Assembly (NCBI RefSeq): GCF_029227915.1
Contig: NC_079885.1
Location: forward strand, 19,665,001 to 19,729,000
DNA from: Hydractinia symbiolongicarpus
Taxonomy: Eukaryota; Cnidaria; Hydrozoa; Anthoathecata; Hydractiniidae
Length of the DNA stretch: 64,000 nucleotides
Reading direction: 5' to 3'
Each line of letters begins with the position of its first letter. The first letter of the stretch is position 1. The notes under the pieces were generated by a model. The model ran no database searches. It was not told where the DNA came from and worked only from the letters and a program-made list of their open reading frames with translations. The translations under genes and the position numbers were made by a program. Of this stretch, positions 44,849 through 64,000 are shown piece after piece.

Positions 44849-45150
44849 CTTTACTCTATCAGCAAATGCAACGTTATGCCGGTGAACGAAACGTTCTTCT
44901 CGTGGTGAAATTCATCCGTTAACATAAACTCTAGACGGTCCGTCCAGCTTTAGAATTATCGTGACATTAGGAATCATAAGCAGTGGTAGCACTATCGCTC
45001 ATCTTTACTCTATCAGCAATTGCAACGTTATGCCGGTGAACGAAACGTTCTTCTCGTGGTGAAATTCATCCGTTAACATAAACTCTAGACGGTCCGTCCA
45101 GCTTTAGAATTATCGTGACATTAGGAATCATAAGCAGTGGTAGCACTATC
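44841..45150. repeat. 154-bp direct duplication of the Polinton/satellite junction
   Basis: 44841-44994 and 44995-45150 are nearly identical (one clear difference, AGCAAATGC versus AGCAATTGC). Each copy contains the start of the element gene, the virion-gene tail and the first ~45 bases of satellite sequence. Confidence 0.85.
44850..44948 (-). pseudogene. C-terminal tail of virion-like protein, truncated by the satellite
   Basis: About 30 codons ending in a TAA just before the next ATG: TDRLEFMLTDEFHHEKNVSF, matching the last part of the gene at 28581-29247. Upstream coding sequence is replaced by tRNA-satellite DNA. Confidence 0.65.
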
Positions 45151-45181
45151 TGTTTCATCTGATCGAAGTATTTGTTCATTG

Positions 45182-45228
<47 letters not shown>

Positions 45229-45255
45229 GGCGCTAACCAATTGCGCCACGGAGAC
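45182..45255 (-). tRNA. tRNA-Asn(GTT), A copy
   Basis: Leftmost copy, next to the duplicated junction. G26 is C. Confidence 0.8.
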
Positions 45256-45450
45256 ATGAAACTTACTGAAGTTTCCCTATTTACAAGTTGGCTCATTTAC
45301 TTTCATTTATTTTTAATAGCACATCTGATGATGCCAGTAAACATGGCTACAAGAGTAACACTACCGTTGCACTTACAGTTAACGTGACATTAGGAATAAG
45401 AGGCAGTGATAGCACTCTCTCATTCTTCTGATGGACATATTTGTTCATCG

Positions 45451-45524
45451 CTTCCCCGGGTGGGCTTGAACAACCAACCTTTCCGTTAACAGCCAAACGC
45501 GCTAACCAATTGCGGCTCAGGGAC
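45451..45524 (-). pseudogene. tRNA-Asn-like, B copy
   Basis: 5' end GTCCCTGAG breaks the acceptor stem; TTTGG in anticodon stem; T stem GGTTG. Confidence 0.75.
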
Positions 45525-45718
45525 ACGAAACATACTGAAGTATCCCTATTTACTAGTTAGCTAATTCAATTTCAATGTTTTTAACACCACATCTGACTAT
45601 GCAGGTAAACGTAGTTTCAAGACTAAAACTACCGTTGCTTTCACAATTATCGTGACATTAGGAATTATAAGCAGTGGTAGCACTATCTGTTTCAACTGAT
45701 CGAAGTATTTGTTCATTG

Positions 45719-45727
45719 CGTCCCCGC

Positions 45728-45775
<48 letters not shown>

Positions 45776-45792
45776 AATTGCGCCACGGAGAC
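45719..45792 (-). tRNA. tRNA-Asn(GTT), A copy
   Basis: Near consensus; acceptor junction CCACG-CGGGGAC instead of CCACC. Confidence 0.8.
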
Positions 45793-45986
45793 ATGAAACT
45801 TACTGAAGTTTCCCTATCTACAAGTTGGCTCATTTACTTTCGTTTATTTTAATAGCACATCTGATGATGCCAGTAGACATGGTTACAACAGTAACACTAC
45901 CGTTGCTCTTACAGTTAACGTGACATTAGGAATAAGAGGCAGTGATAGCACTCTCTGATTTTTCTAATGGACATACTTGTTCATCG

Positions 45987-45988
45987 CT

Positions 45989-46019
<31 letters not shown>

Positions 46020-46060
46020 CGTTAACAGCCGAAAGCGCTAACCAATTTCGGCACGGAGAC
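45987..46060 (-). pseudogene. tRNA-Asn-like, B copy
   Basis: Subtype with GCCGAAATTGG and GCGCTTTCGG, shared with copies at 47039, 48186, 48723 (nearly), 49795 and 50332. Confidence 0.75.
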
Positions 46061-46254
46061 ACGAAACATACTGAAGTATCCCTATTTACTAGTTAGCTAA
46101 TTCAATTTCAATGTTTCTAACACCACATCTGACTATGCAGGTAAACGTAGTTTCAAGACTAAAACTACCGTTGCTTTTACAATTATCGTGACATTAGGAA
46201 TCATAAGCAGTGGTAGCACTATCTGCGTTATCTGATCGAAGTATTTGTTCATTG

Positions 46255-46328
46255 CGTCACCGGGTGGGCTTGAACCACCAAGCTTTCGGTTAACAGCCGA
46301 ACGCGCTAACCAATTGCGCCACGGAGAC
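46255..46328 (-). tRNA. tRNA-Asn(GTT), A copy
   Basis: GGTGACG 3' end and AAGCTTGG; about 20 nt of the usual 5' flank are deleted, so CCTATTTAC abuts the gene start. Confidence 0.75.
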
Positions 46329-46502
46329 CCTATTTACAAGTTGGCTCATTTACTTTCGTTTATTTTAATAGCACATCTGATGATGCCAGTAGACATGGTT
46401 ACAACAGTAACACTACCGTTGCTCTTACAGTTAACGTGACATTAGGAATAAGAGGCAGTGATAGCACTCTCTGATTCTTCGGATGGACATATTTGTTCAT
46501 CA

Positions 46503-46576
46503 CTTCCCCGGGTGGGCTTGAACCACCAACCTTCCCGTTAACAGCCAAACGCGCTAACCAATTACGGAACGGAGAC
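46503..46576 (-). pseudogene. tRNA-Asn-like, B copy
   Basis: D arm TTCCGTAATTGG and TTTGG anticodon stem. Confidence 0.75.
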
Positions 46577-46770
46577 ACAAAACATACTGAAGTATCCCTA
46601 TTTACTAGTTAGCTAATTCAATATCAATGTTTTTAACACCACATCTGACTATGCAGGTAAACGTAGTTTCAAGACTAAAACTACCGTTGCTTTTACAATT
46701 ATCGTGACATTAGGAATCATAAGCAGTGGTAGCACTATCTCTTTCATCTGATCGAAGTATTTGTTCATTG

Positions 46771-46827
<57 letters not shown>

Positions 46828-46844
46828 AATTGCGCCACGGAGAC
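46771..46844 (-). tRNA. tRNA-Asn(GTT), A copy
   Basis: Matches the consensus: all four stems pair, anticodon GTT, T loop TTCAAGC. Confidence 0.88.
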
Positions 46845-47038
46845 ATGAAACTTACTGAAGTTTCCCTATTTGCAAGTTGGCTCATTTACTTTCGTTTATT
46901 TTAATAGCACATCTGATGATGCCAGTAAACATGGTTACAACAGTAACACTACCGTTGCTCTTACAGTTAACGTGACATTAGGAATAAGAGGCAGTGATAG
47001 CACTCTCTGATTTTTCTAATGGACATACTTGTTCATCG

Positions 47039-47040
47039 CT

Positions 47041-47071
<31 letters not shown>

Positions 47072-47112
47072 CGTTAACAGCCGAAAGCGCTAACCAATTT
47101 CGGCACGGAGAC
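47039..47112 (-). pseudogene. tRNA-Asn-like, B copy
   Basis: GCCGAAATTGG/TTTCGG subtype. Confidence 0.75.
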
Positions 47113-47306
47113 ACGAAACATACTGAAGTATCCCTATTTACTAGTTAGCTAATTCAATTTCAATGTTTCTAACACCACATCTGACTATGCAGGTAAACGT
47201 AGTTTCAAGACTAAAACTACCGTTGCTTTTACAATTATCGTGACATTAGGAATCATAAGCAGTGGTAGCACTATCTGCGTTATCTGATCGAAGTATTTGT
47301 TCATTG

Positions 47307-47380
47307 CGTCACCGGGTGGGCTTGAACCACCAAGCTTTCGGTTAACAGCCGAACGCGCTAACCAATTGCGCCACGGAGAC
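47307..47380 (-). tRNA. tRNA-Asn(GTT), A copy
   Basis: Same two changes as the copy at 46255 (AAGCTTGG, GGTGACG), but with full 5' flank. Confidence 0.8.
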
Positions 47381-47574
47381 ATGAAACTTACTGAAGTTTC
47401 CCTATTTACAAGTTGGCTCATTTACTTTCGTTTATTGTAATAGCACATCTGATGATGCCAGTAAACATGGTTACAACAGTAACACTACCGTTGCTCTTAC
47501 AGTTAACGTGACATTAGGAATAAGAGGCAGTGATAGCACTCTCTGATTCTTCTGATGGACATATTTGTTCATCG

Positions 47575-47648
47575 CTTCCCCGGGTGCGCTTGAACCACCA
47601 AACTTTCCGTTAACAGCCGAACGCGACAACAAATTGCGCTACGGAGAC
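47575..47648 (-). pseudogene. tRNA-Asn-like, B copy
   Basis: Unusual B: G10 kept (TAGCGC), but D arm reads AATTTGTTGTCGC and T arm AAAGTTTGG. Confidence 0.7.
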
Positions 47649-47842
47649 GCGAAACTTACTGAAGTATCCCTATTCACTAGTAGGCTAATTCAATTTCAGT
47701 GTTCTTAACATCACATCTGACTATGCAGGTAAACGTAGTTTCAAGACTAAAACTACCGTTGCTGTTACAATTATCGTGACATTAGGAATCAGAAGCAGTG
47801 GTAGCACTATCTGTTTCATCTGATCGAAGTATTTGTTCATTG

Positions 47843-47874
<32 letters not shown>

Positions 47875-47916
47875 TGGTTAACAGCCGAACGTGCTAACCA
47901 ATTGCGCCACGGAGAC
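47843..47916 (-). tRNA. tRNA-Asn(GTT), A copy
   Basis: Changes GCACG in D stem and AACCAAAAGG in anticodon arm weaken pairing. Confidence 0.75.
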
Positions 47917-48059
47917 ATGAAACTTACTGAAGTTTCCCTATTTACAAGTTGGCTCATTTACTTTCGTTTATTTTTAATAGCACATCTGATGATGCCAGTA
48001 AACATGGTTACAACAGTAACACTCCCGTTGCTCTTACAGTTAACGTGACATTAGGAATA

Positions 48060-48075
48060 AGAGGCAGTGATAGCA
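48060..48075. other. inversion breakpoint of the satellite
   Basis: Minus-strand monomer B sequence (..CACTCTCTGATT, read on plus) passes directly into plus-strand monomer A tail (AGTCTTGAAACTACG). The minus B copy is cut before its tRNA part. Arrays on the two sides therefore diverge. Confidence 0.85.
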
Positions 48076-48185
48076 CTCTCTGATTAGTCTTGAAACTACG
48101 TTTACCTGCATAGTCAGATGTGGTGTTAGAAACATTGAAATTGAATTAGCTAACTAGTAAATAGGGATACTTCAGTATGTTTCGT

Positions 48186-48226
48186 GTCTCCGTGCCGAAA
48201 TTGGTTAGCGCTTTCGGCTGTTAACG

Positions 48227-48257
<31 letters not shown>

Positions 48258-48259
48258 AG
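48186..48259 (+). pseudogene. tRNA-Asn-like, B copy
   Basis: First plus-strand copy after the inversion; GCCGAAATTGG/TTTCGG subtype. Confidence 0.75.
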
Positions 48260-48454
48260 CGATGAACAAGTATGTCCATCAGAAAAATCAGAGAGTGCTA
48301 TCACTGCCTCTTATTCCTAATGTCACGTTAACTGTAATAGCAACGGGAGTGTTACTGTTGAAACCATGTTTACTGGCATCATCAGATGTGCTATTAAAAA
48401 TAAACGAAAGTAAATGAGCCAACTTGTAAATAGGGAAACTTCAGTAAGTTTCAT

Positions 48455-48471
48455 GTCTCCGTGGCGCAATT

Positions 48472-48523
<52 letters not shown>

Positions 48524-48528
48524 TGACG
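48455..48528 (+). tRNA. tRNA-Asn(GTT), A copy
   Basis: Consensus except CCCGGTGACG in the 3' acceptor strand. Confidence 0.83.
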
Positions 48529-48722
48529 CAATGAACAAATACTTCGATCAGATAAAGCAGATAGTGCTACCACTGCTTATGATTCCTAATGTCACGATAA
48601 TTGTAAAAGCAACGGTAGTTTTAGTCTTAAAACTACGTTTACCTGCTTAGTCAGATGTGGTGTTAGAAACATTGAAATTGAATTAGCTAACTAGTAAATA
48701 GGGATACTTCAGTATGTTTCGT

Positions 48723-48796
48723 GTCTCCGTGCCGAAATTGGTTAGCGCTTACGGCTGTTAACGGAAATGTTGGTGGTTCAAGCCCACCCGGGGAAG
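48723..48796 (+). pseudogene. tRNA-Asn-like, B copy
   Basis: GCCGAAATTGG, GCTTACGG, and GGAAATG before the T arm. Confidence 0.75.
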
Positions 48797-48990
48797 CGAT
48801 GAACAAGTATGTCCATTAGAAAAATCAGAGAGTGCTATCACTGCTTCTTATTCCTAATGTCACGTTAACTGTAAGAGCAACGGTAGTGTTACTGTTGTAA
48901 CCATGTTTACTGGCATCATCAGATGTGCTATTAAAATAAACGAAAGTAAATGAGCCAACTTGCAAATAGGAAAACTTCAGTAAGTTTCAT

Positions 48991-49007
48991 GTCTCCGTGG
49001 CGCAATT

Positions 49008-49064
<57 letters not shown>
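48991..49064 (+). tRNA. tRNA-Asn(GTT), A copy
   Basis: Matches consensus; 3' flank GCCATGAAC. Confidence 0.88.
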
Positions 49065-49258
49065 CCATGAACAAACACTTCGATCAGATGAAACAGATAG
49101 TGCTACCACTGCTTATGATTCCTAATGTCACGATAATTGTAAAAGCAACGGTAGTTTTAGTCTTGAGAAAACGTTTACCTGCATAGTCAGATGTGGTGTT
49201 AGAAACATTGAAATTAAATTAGCTAACTAGTAAATAGGGATACTTCAGTATGTTTCGT

Positions 49259-49332
49259 GTCTCCGTGCCGCAATTGGTTAGCGCGTTCGGCTGTTAAAGG
49301 AAAGGTTGTTGGTTCAAGCCCACCCGGGGAGG
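49259..49332 (+). pseudogene. tRNA-Asn-like, B copy
   Basis: CTGTTAAAGGAA anticodon arm; GGTTGTTGG T arm. Confidence 0.75.
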
Positions 49333-49526
49333 CGATGAACAAATATGTCCATCAGAAGAATCAGAGAGTGCTATCACTGCCTCTTATTCCTAATGTCACG
49401 TTAACTGTAAGAGCAACGGTAGTGTTACTCTTGTAGCCATATTTACTGGCATCATCAGATGTGCTATTAAAATAAATGAAAGTAATTGAGCCAACTTGTA
49501 AATAGGGAAACTTCAGTAATTTTCAT

Positions 49527-49543
49527 GACTCCGTGGCGCAATT

Positions 49544-49600
<57 letters not shown>
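49527..49600 (+). tRNA. tRNA-Asn(GTT), A copy
   Basis: Position 2 is A (GACTCCG), one acceptor mismatch. Confidence 0.82.
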
Positions 49601-49794
49601 CAATGAACCAATACTTCGATCAGATAAAGCAGATAGTGCTACCACTGCTTATGATTCCTAATGTCACGATAATTGTAAAAGCAACGGTAGTTTTAGTCTT
49701 GAAACAACGTTTACCTGCATAGTCAGATGTGGTGTTAGAAACATTGAAATTGAATTAGCTAAGTAGTAAATAGGGATACTTCAGTATGTTTCGT

Positions 49795-49868
49795 GTCTCC
49801 GTGCCGAAATTGGTTAGCGCTTTCGGCTGTTAACGGAAAGGTTGGTGGTTCAAGTCCACCCGGGGAAG
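49795..49868 (+). pseudogene. tRNA-Asn-like, B copy
   Basis: GCCGAAATTGG/TTTCGG subtype; TTCAAGTCC T loop. Confidence 0.75.
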
Positions 49869-50063
49869 CGATGAACAAGTATGTCCATCAGAAAAATCAG
49901 AGAGTGCTATCATTGCCTCTTATTCCTAATGTCACGTTAACTGTAAGAGCAACGGGAGTGTTACTGTTGTAACCATGTTTACTGGCATCATCAGATGTGC
50001 TATTAAAAATAAACGAAAGTAAATGAGCCAACTTGTAAATAGGGAAACTTCAGTAAGTTTCAT

Positions 50064-50080
50064 GTCTCCGTGGCGCAATT

Positions 50081-50129
<49 letters not shown>

Positions 50130-50137
50130 GAGTGACG
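50064..50137 (+). tRNA. tRNA-Asn(GTT), A copy
   Basis: 3' acceptor strand reads CCACCGAGTGACG, breaking two pairs. Confidence 0.72.
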
Positions 50138-50331
50138 CAATGAACAAATACTTCGATCAGATAAAGCAGATAGTGCTACCACTGCTTATGATTCCTAATG
50201 TCACGATAATTGTAAAAGCAACGGTAGTTTTAGTCTTGAAACTACGTTTACCTGCATAGTCAGATGTGGTGTTAGAAACATTGAAATTGAATTAGCTAAC
50301 TAGTAAATAGGGATACTTCAGTATGTTTCGT

Positions 50332-50405
50332 GTCTCCGTGCCGAAATTGGTTAGCGCTTTCGGCTGTTAACGAAAAGGTTGGTGGTTCAAGCCCACCCGG
50401 GGAAG
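50332..50405 (+). pseudogene. tRNA-Asn-like, B copy
   Basis: GCCGAAATTGG/TTTCGG subtype with AACGAAAAGG. Confidence 0.75.
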
Positions 50406-50599
50406 CGATGAACAAGTATGTCCATTAGAAAAATCAGAGAGTGCTATCACTGCCTCTTATTCCTAATGTCACGTTAACTGTAAGAGCAACGGTAGTGTTA
50501 CTGTTATAACTATGTTTACTGGCATCATCAGATGTGCTATTAAAATAAACGAAAGTAAATGAGCCAACTTGCAAATAGGGAAACATCAGTAAATTTCAT

Positions 50600-50616
50600 G
50601 TCTCCGTGGCGCAATT

Positions 50617-50673
<57 letters not shown>
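50600..50673 (+). tRNA. tRNA-Asn(GTT), A copy
   Basis: Matches consensus. Confidence 0.88.
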
Positions 50674-50867
50674 CAATGAACAAACACTTCGATCAGATGA
50701 AACAGATAGTGCTACCACTGCTTATGATTCCCAATGTCACGATAATTGTAAAAGCAACGGTAGTTTTAGTCTTGAAACTACGTTTACCTGCATAGTCAGA
50801 TGTGGTGTTAAAAACATTGAAATTGAATTAGCTAACTAGTAAATAGGGATACATCAGTATGTTTCGT

Positions 50868-50908
50868 GTCTTAGTGCCGCAATTGGTTAGCGATTTCGGT
50901 TGTTAACG

Positions 50909-50939
<31 letters not shown>

Positions 50940-50941
50940 GG
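50868..50941 (+). pseudogene. tRNA-Asn-like, B copy
   Basis: GTCTTAG 5' end; GCGATTTCGGTTG anticodon arm. Confidence 0.75.
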
Positions 50942-51136
50942 CGATGAACAAATATGTCCATCAGAAGAATCAGAGAGTGCTATCACTGCCTCTTATTCCT
51001 AATGTCACGTTAACTGTAAGAGCAACGCTAGTGTTACTCTTGTAGCCATGTTTACTGGCATCATCAGATGTGCTATTAAAAATAAACGAAAGTAAATGAG
51101 CCAACTTGTAAATAGGGAAACTTCAGTAAGTTTCAT

Positions 51137-51177
51137 GTCTCCGTGGCGCAATTGGTTAGCGCGTTCGGCTGTTAACT

Positions 51178-51210
<33 letters not shown>
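51137..51210 (+). tRNA. tRNA-Asn(GTT), A copy
   Basis: C40 is T (CTGTTAACTGAA), a G-T wobble in the anticodon stem. Confidence 0.83.
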
Positions 51211-51404
51211 CAATAAACAAATACTTCGATCAGATGAAACAGTTAGTGCTACCACTGCTTATGATTCCCAATGTCACGATAATTGTAAAAGCAACGGTAG
51301 TTTTAGTCTTGAAACCACGTTTACCTGCATAGTCAGATGTGGTGTTAAAAACATTGAAATTGAATTAGCTAACTAGTAAATAGGGATACATCAGTATGTT
51401 TCGT

Positions 51405-51445
51405 GTCTTAGTGCCGCCATTGGTTAGCGCGTTCGGCTGTTAACG

Positions 51446-51476
<31 letters not shown>

Positions 51477-51478
51477 GG
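51405..51478 (+). pseudogene. tRNA-Asn-like, B copy
   Basis: GTCTTAG 5' end; GCCGCCATTGG D arm. Confidence 0.75.
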
Positions 51479-51673
51479 CGATGGACAAATATGTCCATCA
51501 GAAGAATCAGAGAGTGCTATCACTGCCTCTTATTCCTAATGTTACGTTAACTGTAAGAGCAAGGGTAGTGTTACCCTTGTAGCCATGTTTACTGGCATCA
51601 TCAGATGTGCTATTAAAAATAAATGAAAGTAAATAAGCCAACTTTTAAATAGGGAAACTTCAGTAAGTTTCAT

Positions 51674-51690
51674 GTCTCCGTGGCGCAATT

Positions 51691-51734
<44 letters not shown>

Positions 51735-51747
51735 GCACCCGGGGACG
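51674..51747 (+). tRNA. tRNA-Asn(GTT), A copy
   Basis: T stem changed to TTCAAGCGCACC, one mismatch. Confidence 0.8.
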
Positions 51748-51941
51748 CAATGAACAAATACTTCGATCAGATGAAACAGATAGTGCTACCACTGCTTATG
51801 ATTCCTAATGTCACGATAATTGTAAAAGCAACGGTAGTTTTAGTCTTGAAACTACGTTTACCTGCATAGTCAGATGTGGTGTTAAAAACATTGAAATTGA
51901 ATTAGCTAAGTAATAAATAGGGATACTTCAGTATGTTTCGT

Positions 51942-52015
51942 GTCTCCGTGCCGCAATTGGTTAGTGCGTTCGCCTGTTAACTGAAAAGTTGGTGGTTCAA
52001 GCCCACCCTTGGAAG
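51942..52015 (+). pseudogene. tRNA-Asn-like, B copy
   Basis: TTCGCCTGTTAACTGAA anticodon arm; CCACCCTTGG 3' end. Confidence 0.75.
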
Positions 52016-52210
52016 CGATGAACAAATATGTCCATCAGAAGAATCAGAGAGTGCTATCACTGCCTCTTATTCCTAATGTCACGTTAACTGTAAAAGCAAC
52101 GGTAGTGTTACTCTTATAGCCATGTTTACTGGCATCATCAGATGTACTATTAAAAATAAATGAAAGTAAATGAGCCAACTTGTAAATAGAGAAACTTCAG
52201 TAAGTTTCAT

Positions 52211-52227
52211 GTCTCCGTGGCGCAATT

Positions 52228-52284
<57 letters not shown>
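52211..52284 (+). tRNA. tRNA-Asn(GTT), A copy
   Basis: Matches consensus. Confidence 0.88.
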
Positions 52285-52478
52285 CAATGAACAAATACTT
52301 CGATCAGATGAAACAGATAGTGCTACCACTGCTTATGATTCCTAATGTCACGATAATTGTAAAAGCAACGGTAGTTTTAGTCTTGAAACTACGTTTACCT
52401 GCATAGTCAGATATGGTGTTAAAAACATTGAAATTAAATTAGCTAACTAGTAAATAGGGATACTTCAGTATGTTTCGT

Positions 52479-52552
52479 GCCTTCGTGTCTCAATTTGTTG
52501 GCGCGTTCGGCTGTTAACGGAAAGATTGGTGGTTCAAGCCCACCCGGGGAAG
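52479..52552 (+). pseudogene. tRNA-Asn-like, B copy, GCCTTCG class
   Basis: GCCTTCGTGTCTCAATTTG destroys acceptor and D stems and box A; see also 54624, 56235, 57847, 63216. Confidence 0.75.
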
Positions 52553-52747
52553 CGATGAACAAGTATGTCCATCAGAAAAATCAGAGAGTGCTATCACTGC
52601 CTCTTATTCCTAATGTCACGTTAACTGTAAGAGCAACGGTAGTGTTACTGTTGTAGCCATGTTTACTGGCATCATCAGATGTGCTATTAGAAATAAATGA
52701 AAGTAAATGTTTCAACTTGTAAATAGGGAAACTTCAGTAAGTTTCAT

Positions 52748-52764
52748 GTCTCCGTGGCGCAATT

Positions 52765-52821
<57 letters not shown>
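52748..52821 (+). tRNA. tRNA-Asn(GTT), A copy
   Basis: Matches consensus; 3' flank GCAATAAAC. Confidence 0.88.
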
Positions 52822-53015
52822 CAATAAACAAATACTTCGATGAGATGAAACAGTTAGTGCTACCACTGCTTATGATTCCCAATGTCACGATAATTGTAAA
52901 AGCAACGGTAGTTTTAGTCTTGAAACTACGTTTACCTGCATAGTCAGATGTGGTGTTAAAAACATTGAAATTGAATTAGCTAACTAGTAAATAGGAATAC
53001 ATCAGTATGTTTCGT

Positions 53016-53056
53016 GTCTTAGTGCCGCAATTGGTTGGCGCGTTCGGCTGTTAACG

Positions 53057-55966: not shown

Positions 55967-55984
55967 GTCTCCGTGGCGCAATTC

Positions 55985-56040
<56 letters not shown>
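55967..56040 (+). tRNA. tRNA-Asn(GTT), A copy
   Basis: AATTCGTTAGC D loop as at 55430, otherwise consensus. Confidence 0.8.
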
Positions 56041-56234
56041 CAATGAACAAATACTTCGATCAGATGAAACAGATAGTGCTGCCACTGCTTATGATTCCTA
56101 ATGACACGATAATTGTAAAAGCAACGGTAGTTTCAGTCTTGAAACAACGTTTACCTGCATAGTCAGATATGGTGTTAAAAACATTGAAATTAAATTAGCT
56201 AACTAGTAAAAAGGGATACTTCAGTATGTTTTGC

Positions 56235-56275
56235 GCCTTCGTGTCTCAATTTGTTGGCGCGTTCGGCTGTTAACG

Positions 56276-56306
<31 letters not shown>

Positions 56307-56308
56307 AG
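56235..56308 (+). pseudogene. tRNA-Asn-like, B copy, GCCTTCG class
   Basis: 1,611 bp (three units) after the previous member. Confidence 0.75.
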
Positions 56309-56503
56309 CGATGAACAAGTATGTCCATCAGAAAAATCAGAGAGTGCTATCACTGCCTCTTATTCCTAATGTCACGTTAACTGTAAGAGCAACGGTAGTG
56401 TTACTGTTGTAGCCATGTTTACTGGCATCATCAGATGTGCTATTAGAAATAAATGAAAGTAAATGTGTCAACTTGTAAATAGGGAAACTTCAGTAAGTTT
56501 CAT

Positions 56504-56577
56504 GTCTCCGTGGCGCAATTGGTTAGCGCGTTCGGCTGTTATCCGAAAGGTTGGTGGTTCAAGCCAACCCGGGGACG
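56504..56577 (+). tRNA. tRNA-Asn(GTT), A copy, TTATCCG variant
   Basis: Also AAGCCAACCCGG in the T stem. Confidence 0.78.
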
Positions 56578-56771
56578 CAATGAAGAAATTCTTTGATCAG
56601 ATGAAACAGATAGTGCTACCACTGCTTATGATTCCTAATGTCACGATAATTGTAAAAGCAACGGTAGTTTTAGTCTTGAAACTACGTTTACCTGCATAGT
56701 CAGATGTGGTGGTAAAAACATTGAAATTGAATTAGGTAACTAGTAAATAGGGATACTTTAGTATGTTTCGT

Positions 56772-56845
56772 TTCTCCGTGCCGCAATTGGTTAGCGCGTT
56801 CGGTTGTTAACGGAAAGGTTGGTGGTTCAAACCCACCCGGGGAAG
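56772..56845 (+). pseudogene. tRNA-Asn-like, B copy
   Basis: G1 is T (TTCTCCG); TTCGGTTG; TTCAAACCC T loop. Confidence 0.75.
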
Positions 56846-57040
56846 CGATGAACAAATATGTCCATCAGAAGAATCAGAGAGTGCTATCACTGCCTCTTAT
56901 TCCTAAAGTCACGTTAACTGTAAGAGCAACGGTAGTGTTACACTTGTAGCCATGTCTATTGGCATCATCAGATGTGCTATTAAAAATAAATGAAAGTAAA
57001 TGAGCCAACTTGTAAATAGGGAAACTTCAGTAAGTTTCAT

Positions 57041-57114
57041 GTCTCCGTGGCGCAATTGGTTAGCGCCTTCGGCTGTTATCCGAAATGTTGGTGGTTCAAG
57101 CCCACCCGGGGACG
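57041..57114 (+). tRNA. tRNA-Asn(GTT), A copy, TTATCCG variant
   Basis: GCGCCTTCGG and GAAATGTTGG in addition. Confidence 0.76.
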
Positions 57115-57308
57115 CAATGAACAAATTCTTTGATCAGATGAAACAGATAGTGCTACCACTGCTTATGATTCCTAATGTCACGATAATTGTAAAAGTAACG
57201 GTAGTTTTAGTCTTGAAACTACGTTTACCTGCATAGTCAGATATGGTGTTAAAAACATTGAAATTGAATTAGCTAACTAGTAAATAGGGATACTTCAGTA
57301 TGTTTCGT

Positions 57309-57382
57309 GTCTCCGTGCCGCTGTTGGTTAGCGCGTTCGCCTGTTAACTGAAAGGTTGGTGGTTCAAGCCCAACCGGGGAAG
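57309..57382 (+). pseudogene. tRNA-Asn-like, B copy
   Basis: GCCGCTGTTGG D arm; TTCGCCTGTTAACTG; CCCAACCGG. Confidence 0.75.
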
Positions 57383-57578
57383 CGATGAACAAATATGTCC
57401 ATCAGAAGAATCAGAGAGTGCTATCACTGCCTCTTATTCCTAATGTCACGTTAACTGTAAAAGCAACGGTAGTGTTACTCTTGTAGCCATGTTTACTGGC
57501 ATCATCAGATGTTCTATTAAAAATAAATGAAAGTAAATGAGCCAACTTGTAAATAGGGAAACTTCAGTAGGGTTTCAT

Positions 57579-57595
57579 GTCTCCGTGGCGCAATT

Positions 57596-57640
<45 letters not shown>

Positions 57641-57652
57641 TACCCGGGGACG
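57579..57652 (+). tRNA. tRNA-Asn(GTT), A copy
   Basis: AAGCCTACCC T stem; the downstream T4 run is lost here (GGTACTGTTAGTC). Confidence 0.8.
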
Positions 57653-57846
57653 CAATGAACAAATACTTCGATCAGATGAAACAGATAGTGCTACCACTGC
57701 TTATGATTCCTAATGTCACGATAATTGTAAAAGCAACGGTACTGTTAGTCTTGAAACTACGTTTACCTGCATAGTCAGATATGGTGTTAAAAACATTGAA
57801 ATTGAATTAGCTAACTAGTAAATAGAGATACTTCAGTATGTTTCGT

Positions 57847-57887
57847 GCCTTCGTGTCTCAATTTGTTGGCGGGTTGGGCTGTTAACG

Positions 57888-57918
<31 letters not shown>

Positions 57919-57920
57919 AG
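57847..57920 (+). pseudogene. tRNA-Asn-like, B copy, GCCTTCG class
   Basis: 1,612 bp (three units) after the previous member; GGCGGGTTGGGC. Confidence 0.75.
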
Positions 57921-58115
57921 CGATGAACAAGTATGTCCATCAGAAAAATCAGAGAGTGCTATCACTGCCTCTTATTTTTAATGTCACGTTAACTGTAAGA
58001 GCAACGGTAGTGTTACTGTTGTAGCCATGTTTACTGGCATCATCAGATGTGCTATTAGAAATAAATGAAAGTAAATGTGTCAACTTGTAAATAGGGAAAC
58101 TTCAGTAAGTTTCAT

Positions 58116-58132
58116 GTCTCCGTGGCGCAATT

Positions 58133-58181
<49 letters not shown>

Positions 58182-58189
58182 TGGGGACG
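58116..58189 (+). tRNA. tRNA-Asn(GTT), A copy
   Basis: CCACCTGGGGAC: C66 is T. Confidence 0.83.
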
Positions 58190-58383
58190 CAATGAACAAA
58201 TAGCTCGATCAGATGAAACAGATAGTGCTACCACTGCTTATGATTCCTAATGTCACGATAATTGTAAAAGCAACGGTACTTTTAGTCTTGAAACTACGTT
58301 TACCTGCATAGTCAGATGTGGTGTTAAAAACATTGAAATTGAATTAGGTAACTAGTAAATAGGGATACTTTAGTATGTTTCGT

Positions 58384-58457
58384 GTCTCCGTGCCGCAATT
58401 GGTTAGCGCGTTCGGTTGTTAACGGAAAGGTTGGTGGTTCAAACCCACCCGGGGAAG
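58384..58457 (+). pseudogene. tRNA-Asn-like, B copy
   Basis: TTCGGTTG and TTCAAACCC subtype. Confidence 0.75.
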
Positions 58458-58652
58458 CGATGAACAAATATGTCCATCAGAAGAATCAGAGAGTGCTATC
58501 ACTGCCTCTTATTCCCAAAGTCACGTTAACTGTAAGAGCAACGGTAGTGTTACTTTTGTAGCCATGTCTACTGGCATCATCAGATGTGCTATTAAAAATA
58601 AATGAAAGTAAATGAGCCAACTTGTAAATAGGGAAACTTCAGTAAGTTTCAT

Positions 58653-58669
58653 GTCTCCGTGGCGCAATT

Positions 58670-58717
<48 letters not shown>

Positions 58718-58726
58718 GCGGGGACG
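58653..58726 (+). tRNA. tRNA-Asn(GTT), A copy
   Basis: CCCACGCGGGGAC subtype, shared with 59726 and 61873. Confidence 0.82.
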
Positions 58727-58920
58727 CAATGAACAAATACTTCGATCAGATGAAACAGATAGTGCTACAACTGCTTATGATTCCTAATGTCACGATAATT
58801 GTAAAAGCAACGGTAGTTTTAGTCTTGAAACTACGTTTACCTGCATAGTCAGATGTGGTGTTAAAAACATTGAAATTGAATTAGGTAACTAGTAAATAGG
58901 GATACTTTAGTATGTTTCGT

Positions 58921-58994
58921 TTCTCCGTGCCGCAATTGGTTAGCGCATTCGGTTGTTAACGGAAAGGTTGGTGGTTCAAACCCACCCGGGGAAG
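58921..58994 (+). pseudogene. tRNA-Asn-like, B copy
   Basis: G1 is T; GCGCATTCGGTTG. Confidence 0.75.
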
Positions 58995-59188
58995 CGATGA
59001 ACAAATATGTCCATCAGAAGAATCAGAGAGTGCTATCACTGCCTCTTATTCCTAAAGTCACGTTAACTGTAATAGCAACGGTAGTGTTACACTTGTAGCC
59101 ATGTCTACTGGCATCATCAGATGTGCTATTAAAAATAAATGAAAGTAAATGAGCCAACTTGTAAATAGGGAAACTTCAGTAAAATCAT

Positions 59189-59227
59189 GTCTCCGTGGCG
59201 CAATTGGTTAGCGCGTTCGGCTGTTAT

Positions 59228-59262
<35 letters not shown>
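59189..59262 (+). tRNA. tRNA-Asn(GTT), A copy, TTATCCG variant
   Basis: 5' flank AGTAAAATCAT, shared only with 60799. Confidence 0.83.
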
Positions 59263-59456
59263 CAATGAACAAATTCTTTGATCAGATGAAACAGATAGTG
59301 CCACAACTGCTTATGATTCCTAATGTCACGATAATTGTAAAAGCAACGGTAGTTTTAGTCTTGAAACTACGTTTACCTGCATAGTCAGATGTGGTGTTAA
59401 AAACATTGAAATTGAATTAGCTAACTAGTAAATAGGGATATTTCAGTATGTTTCGT

Positions 59457-59530
59457 GTCTCCGTGCTGCAATTGGTAAGCCCGTTCGGCTGTTAACGGAA
59501 AGGTTGGTGGTTCAAGCCCAAACGGGGAAG
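59457..59530 (+). pseudogene. tRNA-Asn-like, B copy
   Basis: GTGCTGCAATTGGTAAGCCCG. Confidence 0.72.
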
Positions 59531-59725
59531 CGATAAACAGATATGTCCATCAGAAGAATCAGAGAGTGCTATCACTGCCTCTTATTCCTAATGTCACGTT
59601 AACTGTAAGAGCAACGGTAGTGTTACACTTGTAGCCATGTCTACTGGCATCATCAGATGTTCTATTAAAAATAAATGAAAGTAAATGAGCCAACTTGTAA
59701 ATAGGGAAACTTCAGTAAGATTCAT

Positions 59726-59742
59726 GTCTCCGTGGCGCAATT

Positions 59743-59783
<41 letters not shown>

Positions 59784-59799
59784 GGCCCACGCGGGGACG
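59726..59799 (+). tRNA. tRNA-Asn(GTT), A copy
   Basis: TTCAGGCCCACGCGGGG. Confidence 0.8.
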
Positions 59800-59993
59800 C
59801 AATGAACAAATACTTCGATCAGATGAAACAGATAGTGCTACAACTGCTTATGATTCCTAATGTCACGATAATTGTAAAAGCAACGGTAGTTTTAGTCTTG
59901 AAACTACGTTTACCTGCATAGTCAGATGTGGTGTTAAAAACATTGAAATTGAATTAGCTAACTAGTAAATAGGGATATTTCAGTATGTTTCGT

Positions 59994-60067
59994 GTCTCCG
60001 TGCCCCAATTGGTAAGCGCGTTCCGTTGTTAACGGAAAGGTTGGTGGTTCAAGCCCAAACGGGGAAG
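59994..60067 (+). pseudogene. tRNA-Asn-like, B copy
   Basis: GCCCCAATTGGTAAGC; TTCCGTTG. Confidence 0.75.
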
Positions 60068-60262
60068 CGATGAACAGATATGTCCATCAGAAGAATCAGA
60101 GAGTGCTATCACTGCCTCTTATTCCTAATGTCACGTTATTTGTAGGAGCAACGGTAGTGTTACTCTTGTAGCCATGTTTACTGGCATCATCAGATGTGCT
60201 ATTAAAAATAAATGAAAGTAAATAAGCGAACTTTTAAATAGGGAAACTTCAGTAAGTTTCAT

Positions 60263-60279
60263 GTCTCCGTGGCGCAATT

Positions 60280-60336
<57 letters not shown>
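60263..60336 (+). tRNA. tRNA-Asn(GTT), A copy
   Basis: Matches consensus; 5' flank AACTTTTAAATAGG, shared with 51674 and 61336. Confidence 0.88.
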
Positions 60337-60530
60337 CAATGAACAAATACTTCGATCAGATGAAACAGATAGTGCTACCACTGCTTATGATTCCTAATGT
60401 CACGATAATTGTAAAAGCAACGGTACTTTTAGTCTTGAAACTACGTTTACCTGCATAGTCAGATGTGGTGTTAAAAACATTGAAATTGAATTAGGTAACT
60501 AGTAAATAGGGATACTTTAGTATGTTTCGT

Positions 60531-60604
60531 GTCTCCGTGCCGCAATTGGTTAGCGCGTTCGGTTGTTAACGGAAAGGTTGGTGGTTCAAACTCATCCGGG
60601 GAAG
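60531..60604 (+). pseudogene. tRNA-Asn-like, B copy
   Basis: TTCGGTTG; TTCAAACTCATCC T arm. Confidence 0.75.
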
Positions 60605-60798
60605 CGATGAACAAATATGTCCATCAGAAGAATCAGAGAGTGCTATCACTGCCTGTTATTCCTAAAGTCACGTTAACTGTAAGAGCAACGGTAGTGTTAC
60701 ACTTGTAGCCATGTCTACCGGCATCATCAGATGTGCTATTAAAAATAAATGAAAGTAAATGAGCCAACTTGTAAATAGGGAAACTTCAGTAAAATCAT

Positions 60799-60837
60799 GT
60801 CTCCGTGGCGCAATTGGTTAGCGCGTTCGGCTGTTAT

Positions 60838-60872
<35 letters not shown>
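60799..60872 (+). tRNA. tRNA-Asn(GTT), A copy, TTATCCG variant
   Basis: Three units after 59189, with the same 5' flank. Confidence 0.83.
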
Positions 60873-61066
60873 CAATGAACAAATTCTTTGATCAGATGAA
60901 ACAGATAGTGCTACAACTGCTTATGATTCCTAATGTCACGATAATTGTAAAAGCAACGGTAGTTTTAGTCTTAAAACTACGTTTACCTGCATAGTCAGAT
61001 GTGGTGTTAAAAACATTGAAATTGAATTAGCTAACTAGTAAATAGGGATATTTCAGTATGTTTCGT

Positions 61067-61140
61067 GTCTCCGTGCCGCAATTGGTAAGCGCGTTCGGCT
61101 GTTAACGGAAAGGTTGGTGGTTCAAGCCCAAACGGGGAAG
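61067..61140 (+). pseudogene. tRNA-Asn-like, B copy
   Basis: GGTAAGCGCG; CCCAAACGGGG, shared with 59457 and 59994. Confidence 0.75.
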
Positions 61141-61335
61141 CGATGAACAGATATGTCCATCAGAAGAATCAGAGAGTGCTATCACTGCCTCTTATTCCTA
61201 ATGTCACGTTATTTGTAAGAGCAACGGTAGTGTTACTCTTGTAGCCATGTTTACTGGCATCATCCGATGTGCTATTAAAAATAAAGGAAAGTAAATAAGC
61301 CAACTTTTAAATAGGGAAACTTCAGTAAGTTTCAT

Positions 61336-61352
61336 GTCTCCGTGGCGCAATT

Positions 61353-61397
<45 letters not shown>

Positions 61398-61409
61398 AAC
61401 CCGGGGACG
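61336..61409 (+). tRNA. tRNA-Asn(GTT), A copy
   Basis: AAGCCAACCCGG T stem. Confidence 0.82.
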
Positions 61410-61603
61410 CAATGAACAAATACTTCGATCAGATGAAACAGATAGTGCTACCACTGCTTATGATTCCTAATGTCACGATAATTGTAAAAGCAACGGTACT
61501 TTTAGTCTTAAAACTACGTTTACCTGCATAGTCAGATGTGGTGTTAAAAACATTGAAATTGAATTAGGTAACTAGTAAATAGGGATACTTTAGTATGTTT
61601 GGT

Positions 61604-61677
61604 GTCTCCGTGCCGCAATTGGTTAGCGCGTTCGGTTGTTAACGGAAAGGTTGGTGGTTCAAACCCACCCGGGGAAG
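61604..61677 (+). pseudogene. tRNA-Asn-like, B copy
   Basis: TTCGGTTG, TTCAAACCC subtype. Confidence 0.75.
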
Positions 61678-61872
61678 CGATGAACAAATATGTCCATCAG
61701 AAGAATCAGAGAGTGCTATCACTGCCTCTTATTCCTAAAGTCACGATAACTGTAAGAGCAACGGTAGTGTTACACTTGTAGCCATGTCTATTGGCATCAT
61801 CAGATGTGCTATTAAAAATAAATGAAAGTAAATGAGCCAACTTGTAAATAGGGAAACTTCAGTAGGTTTCAT

Positions 61873-61946
61873 GTCTCCGTGGTGCATTTGGTTAGTGCGT
61901 TCGGCTGTTAACCAAAAGGTTGGTGTTTCAAGCCCACGCGGAGACG
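61873..61946 (+). tRNA. tRNA-Asn(GTT), A copy, impaired
   Basis: GGTGCATTTGGTTAGTGCG, AACCAAAAGG, GGTGTTTCAAG and CACGCGGAGACG. Confidence 0.62.
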
Positions 61947-62140
61947 CAATGAACAAATACTTCGATCAGATGAAACAGATAGTGCTACAACTGCTTATGA
62001 TTCCTAATGTCACGATAATTGTAAAAGCAACGGTAGTTTTAGTCTTGAAACTACGTTTACCTGCATAGTCAGATGTGGTGTTAAAAACATTGAAATTGAA
62101 TTAGCTAACTAGTAAATAGGGATACTTCAGTATGTTTCGT

Positions 62141-62214
62141 GTCTCCGTGCCGCAATTGGTTAGCGCGTTCGCCTGTTAACTGAAAGGTTGGTGGTTCAAG
62201 CCCACGCGGGGAAG
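62141..62214 (+). pseudogene. tRNA-Asn-like, B copy
   Basis: TTCGCCTGTTAACTGAA; CCCACGCGGGG. Confidence 0.75.
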
Positions 62215-62409
62215 CGATGAACAAATATGTCCATCAGAAGAATCAGAGAGTGCTATCACCGCCTCTTATTCCTAATGTCACGTTAACTGTAAAAGCAACG
62301 GTAGCGTTACTCTTGTAGCCATGTTTACTAGCATCATCAGATGTTCTATTAAAAATAAATGAAAGTAAATGAGCCAACTTGTAAATAGGGAAACTTCAGT
62401 AAGTTTCAT

Positions 62410-62483
62410 GTCTCCGTGGCGCAACTGGTTAGCGCGTTCGGCTGTTAACCGAAGGGTTGGTGGTTCAAGCCCACTCGGGGACG
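62410..62483 (+). tRNA. tRNA-Asn(GTT), A copy
   Basis: GGCGCAACTGG, CGAAGGG and CCACTCGGGG; all still pair reasonably. Confidence 0.8.
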
Positions 62484-62678
62484 CAATGAACAAATTCTTT
62501 GATCAGATGAAACAGATAGTGCTACCACTGCTTATGATTCCTAATGTCACGATAATTGTAAAAGCAACGGTAGTTTTAGTCTTTAAACTACGTTTACTTG
62601 CATAGTCAGATGTGGTGTTAAAAACATTGAAATTGAATTAGCTAACTAATAAAAAATGGATACTTCAGTATGTTTCGT

Positions 62679-62752
62679 GTCTCCGTGCCGCAATTGGTTA
62701 ACGCGTTCGCCTGTTAACTGAAAGGTTGGTGGATCAAGCCCACCCGGGGAAG
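62679..62752 (+). pseudogene. tRNA-Asn-like, B copy
   Basis: GGTTAACGCGTTCGCC; box B changed to GGATCAAGCCC. Confidence 0.75.
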
Positions 62753-62947
62753 CGATGAACAAATATGTCCATCAGAAGAATCAGAGAGTGCTATCATTGC
62801 TTCTTATCCCTAATGTCACGTTAACTCTAAAAGCAACGGTAGTGTTACTCTTGTAGCCATGTTTACTGGCATCATCAGATGTTCTATTAAAAATAAATGA
62901 AAGTAAATGAGCCAACTTGTAAATAGGGAAACTTCAGTAACTTTCAT

Positions 62948-62969
62948 GTCTCCGTGGCGCAATTGGTTG

Positions 62970-63016
<47 letters not shown>

Positions 63017-63021
63017 CGACG
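62948..63021 (+). tRNA. tRNA-Asn(GTT), A copy
   Basis: GGTTGGCGCG D arm; CCCGGCGACG. Confidence 0.78.
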
Positions 63022-63215
63022 CAATGAACAAATACTTCCATCAGATGAAACAGATAGCGCTACCACTGCTTATGATTCCTAATGTCACGATAATTGTAAA
63101 AGCAACGGTAGTTTTAGTCTTGAAACTACGTTTACCTGCATAGTCAGATGTGGTGTTAAAAACATTGAAATTGAATTAGCTAACTAGTAAATAGGGATAC
63201 TTCAGTATGTTTCGT

Positions 63216-63256
63216 GCCTTCGTGTCTCAATTTGTTGGCGCGTTCGGCTGTTAACG

Positions 63257-63287
<31 letters not shown>

Positions 63288-63289
63288 AG
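63216..63289 (+). pseudogene. tRNA-Asn-like, B copy, GCCTTCG class
   Basis: 5,369 bp (ten units) after the previous member. Confidence 0.75.
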
Positions 63290-63484
63290 CGATGAACAAG
63301 TATGTCCATCAGAAAAATCAGAGAGTGCTATCACTGCCTCTTATTCCTAATGTCACGTTAACTGTAAGAGCAACGGTAGTGTTACTGTTGTAGCCATGTT
63401 TACTGGCATCATCAGATGTGCTATTAGAAATAAATGAAAGTAAATGTGTCAACTTGTAAATAGGGAAACTTCAGTATGTTTCAT

Positions 63485-63510
63485 GTCTCCGTGGCGCAAT
63501 TGGTTAGCGT

Positions 63511-63558
<48 letters not shown>
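63485..63558 (+). tRNA. tRNA-Asn(GTT), A copy
   Basis: GCGTGTTCGG, otherwise consensus; last full A copy before the window edge. Confidence 0.83.
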
Positions 63559-63752
63559 CAATGAACAAATACTTCGATCAGATGAAACAGTTAGTGCTAC
63601 CACTGGTTATCATTTCCAATGTGACGATAATTGTAAAAGCAACGGTAGTTTTAGTCTTGAAACTACGTTTACCTGCATAGTCAGATGTGGTGTTAAAAAC
63701 ATTGACATTGGATTAGCTAAGTAGTAAATAGGGATACTTCAGCATGTTTCGT

Positions 63753-63826
63753 GTCTTAGTGCCGCAATTGGTTAGCGCGTTCGGCTGTTAACGGAGAGGT
63801 TGGTGGTTCAAGCCCACCCGGGGAGG
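63753..63826 (+). pseudogene. tRNA-Asn-like, B copy
   Basis: GTCTTAG 5' end; AACGGAGAGG. The array runs on past 64000. Confidence 0.75.
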
Positions 63827-64000
63827 CGATGAAAAAATATGTCCATCAGAAGAATCAGAGAGTGCTATCACTGCCTCTTATTCCTAATTTCACGTTAACT
63901 GTAAGAGCAACGGTAGTGTTTCTCTTGTAGCCATGTTTACTGGCATCATCAGATGTGCTATTAAAAATAAATGAAAGTAAATGAGCCAACTTGTAAATAG

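What the first reader, a model, noticed from the sequence alone, without database searches (positions are those of the whole stretch)
44949..64000. A satellite DNA made of tRNA-Asn genes with dimeric higher-order structure
At least 19 kb consists of ~537-bp units, each a pair of homologous but clearly diverged ~268-bp monomers (A and B) carrying one tRNA-Asn-like gene apiece. There are 35 of each in the window and the array runs off the edge. Alternating monomers homogenised as dimers is the organisation of centromeric higher-order satellites, here with a tRNA gene inside every monomer. It could serve as a tRNA-Asn gene bank, a Pol III-bound boundary or centromere-like domain, or simply be selfish expansion.
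Basis: partly seen in the sequence, partly recalled or inferred. Interest (0 to 1): 0.88.

Follow-up and report, generated by a model that had tools for sequence, protein, structure and literature searches.

The report
Huge tRNA-Asn gene–pseudogene tandem array
A chromosome, probably of an animal, carries a stretch of more than 318,000 bases made almost only of tRNA-asparagine copies in which a good copy and a broken copy alternate; giant tRNA arrays were already known in a few animals, but the good–broken alternation lets mutation and selection on tRNA genes be compared side by side.

Summary
The window holds 70 tRNA-Asn-like copies, 35 A and 35 B, alternating about every 268 bp; A and B form two clades with 100/100 support. 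(1) The array flips orientation at about 48,084. (2) It continues beyond the window: 1,166 copies (591 A, 575 B) over 318.5 kb, right end not reached. (3) B is not a tRNA gene: its consensus breaks three stem pairs, and 495 of 517 gap-free B copies have three or more broken pairs, while 299 of 575 gap-free A copies have none. (4) The A tRNA body varies less than A spacer, the B body about twice as much as B spacer, in 10 of 10 sub-blocks each. Best reading: a tRNA-Asn(GUU) gene array whose amplification unit is gene plus pseudogene, homogenised by unequal exchange; A supplies tRNA under array-wide purifying selection, B is a passenger. Giant tRNA arrays are published for Hydractinia, Nippostrongylus and Entamoeba; genome size suggests, without proving, Hydractinia symbiolongicarpus. 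I found no support for a centromere or boundary role. New variant of a known kind.

The parts
44949..48084 (-). Array block 1: 11 tRNA-Asn-like copies (6 A, 5 B) on the - strand, tRNAs at 45182-47916, plus monomer-derived bases down to 44949
48085..64000 (+). Array block 2 (runs off the window): 59 copies (29 A, 30 B) in the window, tRNAs 48186-63826; in the fetched continuation the block goes on to a last tRNA start at extended coordinate 120,561
46771..46844 (-). Example A tRNA-Asn(GUU), identical to the A consensus, Rfam 67.7 bits; five other A copies in the window score the same (48991, 50600, 52211, 52748, 60263)
45451..45524 (-). Example B pseudo-tRNA; not listed by ARAGORN or by Rfam at the gathering threshold
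48080..48090 (.). Head-to-head inversion junction (B 3' part | B 5' part)
   Evidence: best inverted match between the two sides 95.1%, so not a fold-back copy
44839..45150 (.). Near-exact tandem duplication (44839-44996 / 44993-45150, 99.4%) spanning the junction of a truncated transposon copy and the array's first 48 monomer-derived bases
43293..44943 (-). Truncated second copy of a Polinton-like element (74.5% to 29155-30868, inverted); its break is the array's left border
48529..48622 (+). Example A-type 3' trailer (copy at 48455-48528) with the T4 (Pol III terminator-like) at 48619-48622, 91 nt after the tRNA; 32 of 35 A copies of the window have it at that distance
   Evidence: (31 with T4 and 1 with T5 at +91; 1 at +189; 2 none within 268 nt)

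Best explanation
A tRNA-Asn(GUU) gene array of the giant, tandem kind known from Hydractinia and some nematodes. Its amplification unit is a dimer: one working-type gene (A, with a T4 terminator 91 nt downstream) and one pseudogene (B, three broken stem pairs in its consensus, mostly no terminator). Shown: dimer alternation, two clades, A/B constraint contrast, local block duplications, orientation flips. Inferred: Pol III transcribes A and feeds the tRNA-Asn pool; the dimer arose by duplication of a gene-plus-spacer unit, both halves stayed constrained for a while (tRNA bodies differ at 3 near-fixed sites of 74 against 34 of 192 in the spacer), then B lost function and its lesions spread through most B copies because unequal exchange copies dimers in register. 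A is kept good as a population of copies, not copy by copy. B is carried along.
For: Alternation and clades. Near-fixed A/B differences in the tRNA: 3 of 74 sites against 34 of 192 in the spacer (Fisher p 0.0028), each breaking a stem pair. Of 591 A copies, 130 carry the exact consensus tRNA and 299 of the 575 gap-free ones have no broken pair; of 575 B copies 2 carry the B consensus exactly, and of the 517 gap-free ones 1 has one broken pair, 21 have two, 495 three or more. Variant cells, tRNA versus own spacer: A 0.0211 vs 0.0347, B 0.0546 vs 0.0284; A ratio below 1 in 10 of 10 sub-blocks, B above 1 in 10 of 10, and the contrast holds at GC and AT sites apart (36 chimera-like monomers left out). 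Distinct variants held by >=30 copies: A 2 over 74 tRNA sites vs 29 over 185 spacer sites, p 0.0026; B 19 over 74 vs 22 over 186, p 0.008. T4 at +88-96: 518 of 591 A, 17 of 575 B. Exact 400-mer direct repeats at offsets such as 4,020 and 17,431 bp, none inverted among those with fewer than six occurrences; a tetramer (~1.05 kb) block with lag-4 identity 0.971 vs 0.929 at lag 2.
Against: No expression data. A variants of the window break stem pairs as often as randomly placed ones (25 vs 24.8 expected), so no sign of selection on single A copies; rare A variants are as frequent in tRNA as in spacer, and segregating sites of the window A copies do not differ (31 of 74 vs 78 of 192). No T4 within 40 nt of any of 591 A tRNAs, unusual for an efficient tRNA gene. 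Copies are related, so p values are nominal. A/B chimeras exist (36 of 1,166 low-margin monomers; 37 of 1,147 adjacent pairs of the same type), and a tree of 98 sampled monomers needs 2 label changes instead of 1. The dimer coupling test is significant for B-A pairs (r 0.23, p 0.012) but not for A-B pairs (r 0.12, p 0.155). Relaxed selection does not by itself explain B tRNA varying more than B spacer. Whether other tRNA-Asn genes exist in the genome could not be tested.
Confidence: 0.72

Rival explanations
1. Selfish or neutral satellite: a tRNA-derived unit that expands by recombination; neither A nor B matters for translation, and the A/B contrast reflects history only.
For: Single window A copies show no bias against pair-breaking; most A copies carry at least one tRNA variant (130 of 591 are exact); recent block duplications and a DNA transposon inside the array.
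Against: A tRNA bodies are less variable than A spacers in 10 of 10 sub-blocks, and common variants are rare in them; A mostly keeps the T4, B mostly does not; low net A-B divergence in the tRNA (0.038 vs 0.177) needs past constraint on both halves or tRNA-confined exchange.
Confidence: 0.15
2. Chromatin role: the array works as a TFIIIC/Pol III-bound boundary, insulator or centromere-like domain, B serving as a TFIIIC-only site.
For: B box sequence intact in 26 of 35 B and 27 of 35 A window copies; the human 1q23.3 tDNA repeat is CTCF-bound (PMC4041453, abstract).
Against: The B box is not the least variable stretch of the B tRNA (12th of 64 eleven-base stretches, box placed one base early); variation at tRNA positions 46-60 of B is about B spacer level in the long array (0.030); no link to a centromere or domain border could be tested.
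Confidence: 0.06
3. Assembly product: collapsed or mis-joined repeats make the size or the inversions.
For: Alternating-orientation blocks are a common place for joining errors (recalled); no reads were available to me.
Against: The two sides of the window's inversion match at 95.1% at best, the level of ordinary A-A identity, so it is no fold-back copy; no exact inverted 400-mers among those with fewer than six occurrences in 318 kb; no N in the 364 kb joined. Inverted blocks of 5S units are seen in single pike reads (PMC5437419, section 19).
Confidence: 0.05
4. B is under selection to be silenced: a defective tRNA-Asn would be harmful, so variants that hit the acceptor stem and A box spread.
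For: B variation peaks at tRNA positions 1-30 and 61-75; common variants are denser in B tRNA than B spacer; 14 of 18 B tRNA variants seen in >=3 window copies lie at positions 1-41.
Against: B variants in the window do not break more pairs than random ones (37 vs 43.9 expected); elevated mutation in a transcribed body could give a similar profile.
Confidence: 0.08

Closest known systems
Hydractinia ncRNA tandem arrays (Schnitzler et al. 2024, PMC11067881; section 14 and found passages read)
   Same: Tens to hundreds of near-identical, roughly evenly spaced tRNA copies with similar spacers, for all 20 amino acids, in a hydrozoan. The present genome (480.9 Mb, 76 contigs) is close in size to H. 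symbiolongicarpus HSymV2.0 (482.9 Mb, 84 sequences; PMC10411563, passages).
   Different: [quoted passage not shown] the text read says nothing of gene/pseudogene dimers, orientation blocks or an array of >1,100 copies. Its supplementary tables were not open to me.
Nippostrongylus brasiliensis tRNA repeats (PMC5765664, passages)
   Same: Close to 150 copies of a ~200-bp repeat with tRNA-Trp; 90 copies of tRNA-Ser with an 80-bp spacer.
   Different: Monomeric in the passages read; no alternating pseudogene mentioned there.
Entamoeba tRNA gene arrays (PMC2652664, abstract and section 29)
   Same: Tandem tRNA units as a large genome share; mostly uniform within an isolate.
   Different: Units hold up to five tRNA genes, in E. 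histolytica and E. dispar with short tandem repeats between; the authors saw no clear evidence of pseudogene copies.
Human 1q23.3 tDNA VNTR (PMC4041453, abstract)
   Same: tRNA genes inside a copy-number-variable tandem repeat.
   Different: 7.3-kb GC-rich CTCF-binding unit, 9-43 units.
5S rDNA arrays: pike (PMC5437419, abstract and section 19); Xenopus oocyte 5S gene+pseudogene unit (recalled, from no call)
   Same: Pol III gene arrays with inverted blocks (pike); a gene plus pseudogene repeat unit (Xenopus).
   Different: 5S rRNA, not tRNA; [quoted passage not shown]
Alpha-satellite higher-order repeats (recalled, from no call)
   Same: Diverged monomers copied as a multimer in register.
   Different: No gene in the monomer; centromeric; no such role shown here.

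Membership tests
Tandem tRNA gene array (Hydractinia/Nippostrongylus kind) | Many evenly spaced near-identical tRNA copies with homologous spacers | tested here: met
   70 in the window, 1,166 in 318.5 kb
Tandem tRNA gene array (Hydractinia/Nippostrongylus kind) | Copies able to give a tRNA fold with the right anticodon | tested here: met
   A: 18 of 35 window copies and 299 of 575 gap-free copies in the long array with no broken pair; B fails
Tandem tRNA gene array (Hydractinia/Nippostrongylus kind) | Expression as tRNA | not testable with these tools
   no RNA data
Higher-order (multimeric) satellite | Diverged monomer types copied in register as a multimer | tested here: met
   A|B split 100/100 and lag profile; dimer coupling B-A pairs r 0.23 p 0.012, but A-B pairs r 0.12 p 0.155
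Higher-order centromeric satellite | Centromere location / CENP-A chromatin | not testable with these tools
   Position 19.71-20.03 Mb of a 31.04-Mb contig is all that is known
tRNA-derived SINE family | Dispersed single copies with a tRNA-related head | tested here: inconclusive
   In the 44.9 kb left of the array only one 17-base match (E 0.032); the genome-wide search had candidates that were not scored
Hydractinia symbiolongicarpus genome | Species identity of the window | tested here: inconclusive
   Genome size and contig number near HSymV2.0; no marker gene compared

The most novel reading that the evidence does not exclude
The A/B dimer is a natural experiment inside one locus: the same tRNA body, in the same chromatin and copied by the same exchanges, under selection in A and without it in B. 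B then shows the raw mutation input of a Pol III-transcribed tRNA body, about twice that of its own spacer, and A shows selection removing roughly two thirds of it (0.64 vs 2.07 relative to spacer), if both bodies mutate alike. A bolder form: the pseudo-tRNA half is kept for a role, as a silent spacer or TFIIIC site that sets the distance between active genes.
Probability: 0.2. Interest if true: 0.65.

Novelty: new variant of a known kind. Interest (0 to 1): 0.45.

Why it matters
How giant multicopy gene arrays stay functional when each copy is dispensable is an old question. Here a working-type copy and a dead copy sit side by side hundreds of times, so the effect of selection can be read against an internal control: when rare, variants are as dense in the A tRNA as in the A spacer, but common ones are scarce in the A tRNA and plentiful in the B tRNA. 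It could also test transcription-associated mutation in tRNA genes. A tRNA array as such would be no surprise in Hydractinia.

Tried and rejected
Array carried by a transposon: not supported; the region of the first Polinton-like copy shows no monomer beyond a 17-base match, and the second copy is broken off at the array border. Fold-back assembly error at 48,084: rejected on identity. A-to-B gene conversion as the source of B diversity: unlikely, since A bases at the three diagnostic sites are uncommon among B copies (idx10 G 33, idx41 C 5, idx73 C 12 of 575); exchange confined between those sites is not excluded. CpG decay as the cause: not enough, non-CpG sites of window B copies show the same excess (46 distinct variants over 60 sites vs 71 over 182). 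A structured RNA tail: no signal for A (z 0.34), weak for B (z -1.36). Long inverted duplication behind the orientation blocks: no exact inverted 400-mer among those with fewer than six occurrences; the tail-to-tail junctions at 120.6 and 293.9 kb (extended) share a 449-bp spacing and look alike where printed, but an ungapped comparison of 2.45 kb gave 78%, which indels make uninformative. Odd-lag values are not usable (A and B rows have different columns); redid the lags with same-type pairs. The B-box counts were one base off; one search repeats them. Array spacer patterns (viral contigs; genome contigs) had no exact match; the element's polymerase in viral contigs gave 9 pattern matches and no confirmed relative. 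Paper searches aimed at tRNA satellites or tRNA higher-order repeats listed no title or abstract start describing a tRNA gene/pseudogene dimer; one search listed 20 of 29 papers, and only the open library is covered. The main paper on tRNA gene mutation rates (Thornlow 2018) was not held; I know it through a passage of PMC8113476.
Full report
What is there. The right third of the window is a tRNA-Asn(GUU) satellite. A direct scan finds 70 copies of a 74-nt tRNA-Asn-like sequence at 45182-63826, 35 of type A and 35 of type B in strict alternation, about 268 bp apart. Monomers of one type are 94-95% alike on average, A against B 80.7%. The - strand holds the first 11 copies and the + strand the other 59, meeting head to head near 48,084. 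The left border is a join with a truncated copy of an element (1.7 kb at 74.5% to another copy at 29155-30868), duplicated across the join. 'Polinton-like' rests on a DNA_pol_B_2 match of a frame at 25029-26372 (PF03175) and on recall.

How large. The window lies in a 480.9-Mb assembly of 76 contigs, at 19.665-19.729 Mb of a 31.04-Mb contig. The next 300 kb, fetched in 30 pieces, are still array: blocks - (11 copies), + (269), - (235), + (397), - (134), an interruption of about 3.1 kb, - (110 and on) (threshold 50 of 74 matches: 1,156 copies, threshold 48: 1,166 copies, 591 A and 575 B, assigned by the better score to either window consensus). Copies with worse tRNAs are missed, so counts are floors. 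The right end was not reached. The interruption is a DNA transposon with a DDE_Tnp_4 frame and a MADF frame, as in PIF/Harbinger elements (the name is recall). Alternation holds in 1,110 of 1,147 adjacent pairs (37 same-type); 36 monomers score nearly alike to both consensus sequences, so A/B exchange happens but is rare. A tree of 98 sampled monomers needs two label changes, not one.

A is a gene in form, B is not. The A consensus pairs in all four stems; the B consensus breaks the first acceptor pair, the first D-stem pair and one anticodon-stem pair. In the window A copies have 0 (18), 1 (12), 2 (2) or 3 (3) broken pairs, B copies 2 to 6. In the long array 299 of 575 gap-free A copies have none; of 517 gap-free B copies 1 has one, 21 have two and 495 three or more. 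The first run of four or more T lies at +88-96 in 518 of 591 A and 17 of 575 B copies; no A copy has one within 40 nt, 39 A and 411 B copies have none within 268 nt. An A primary transcript would therefore carry a trailer of about 90 nt, which is long.

Selection against an internal control. Between A and B the tRNA has 3 near-fixed differences in 74 sites, the spacer 34 in 192 (p 0.0028): both halves were probably constrained after the duplication. Within types, variant cells are 0.0211 (tRNA) and 0.0347 (spacer) in A, 0.0546 and 0.0284 in B. The A ratio is below 1 (0.38-0.82) and the B ratio above 1 (1.64-3.14) in 10 of 10 sub-blocks, 36 chimera-like monomers left out, and the contrast holds at GC and at AT sites. 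Distinct variants are as dense in A tRNA as in A spacer (1.95 vs 1.89 per site, near saturation), but variants held by 30 or more copies are 2 over 74 sites in A tRNA and 29 over 185 in A spacer, against 19 over 74 and 22 over 186 in B. Against this: A variants of the window break pairs no less often than random ones, so the constraint, if real, acts on which variants spread. That B tRNA exceeds B spacer is not explained by lost selection. Transcription-associated mutation at tRNA genes is a published effect, described for their immediate flanks (PMC8113476 citing Thornlow 2018); in B the 20 bases on either side are only mildly above the far spacer (0.035 and 0.037 vs 0.026), in A one side is (0.049) and the other is not (0.023 vs 0.034), so this fits only in part. 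Spacer constraint or selection for silencing are alternatives. Copies share ancestry, so p values are nominal.

How it evolves. Exact 400-mers recur at direct offsets of about 1 to 18 kb among the 15 commonest, and not inverted (400-mers with six or more occurrences left out). One stretch (304-322 kb extended) is a tetramer of ~1.05 kb, lag-4 identity 0.971 against 0.929 at lag 2. For 6 of the 11 - strand copies a + strand copy at 48.2-50.4 kb is among the two closest of the window's copies; for the other 5 the closest lie elsewhere. This points to unequal exchange or block duplication with occasional inversion. In the window, similarity of A partners and B partners is correlated for B-A pairs (p 0.012), not clearly for A-B pairs (p 0.155).

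What is known. Tandem arrays of tRNA genes for all 20 amino acids, tens to hundreds of copies, are described for two Hydractinia species, and tRNA arrays also for Nematostella (PMC11067881, section 14); ~150-copy tRNA-Trp repeats in Nippostrongylus (PMC5765664); Entamoeba arrays without clear pseudogenes (PMC2652664); more than 17,000 tRNA genes and pseudogenes, 89% clustered, in Nematostella (PMC2888827, passages). Genome size points to H. symbiolongicarpus (PMC10411563), in which case the array itself may be listed in the 2024 paper's supplement; this is inference. That the organism is an animal rests on this and on gene fragments beside the array, some weak. I found no description of the gene/pseudogene dimer in the searches named under Tried and rejected. 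Verdict: a real, very large, but not categorically new structure; new variant of a known kind, with an unusually clean internal control.

Noticed in passing
window 23555-30868 (+) and 43293-44943 (-): Frames with Rho_N and DNA_pol_B_2 matches at 23.6-26.4 kb, and a 1.7-kb stretch at 29.2-30.9 kb with an inverted relative (74.5%) that is truncated at the array border; both hold a related small frame without a family match above cut-off. The element's ends were not determined.
   Followed up: partly
L027, extended coordinates ~329.8-332.9 kb: A ~3-kb transposon inside the array with DDE_Tnp_4 (E 2e-30) and MADF (E 1e-30) frames.
   Followed up: partly
array, B copies, tRNA positions 1-30 and 61-75: B pseudo-tRNAs vary about twice as much as their own spacers, most in the acceptor and D-arm parts; cause open.
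   Followed up: partly
window 16166-16238 (-): An isolated tRNA-like sequence (Rfam 44.4 bits, not called by ARAGORN), different from the array's tRNA.
   Followed up: no
window 42727-43215 (+): A frame with DUF4116 matches (E 8e-16, two stretches) next to the array border.
   Followed up: no
window 3349-3867 and 6657-7415 (-); 32143-32637 (+): Pieces of a PARP-like gene (PARP_reg, WGR, WWE; the PARP catalytic match of 24.5 bits is under its 26.7 cut-off) and a weak Fz match (23.7 bits, under its 32.1 cut-off) in the left flank.
   Followed up: no
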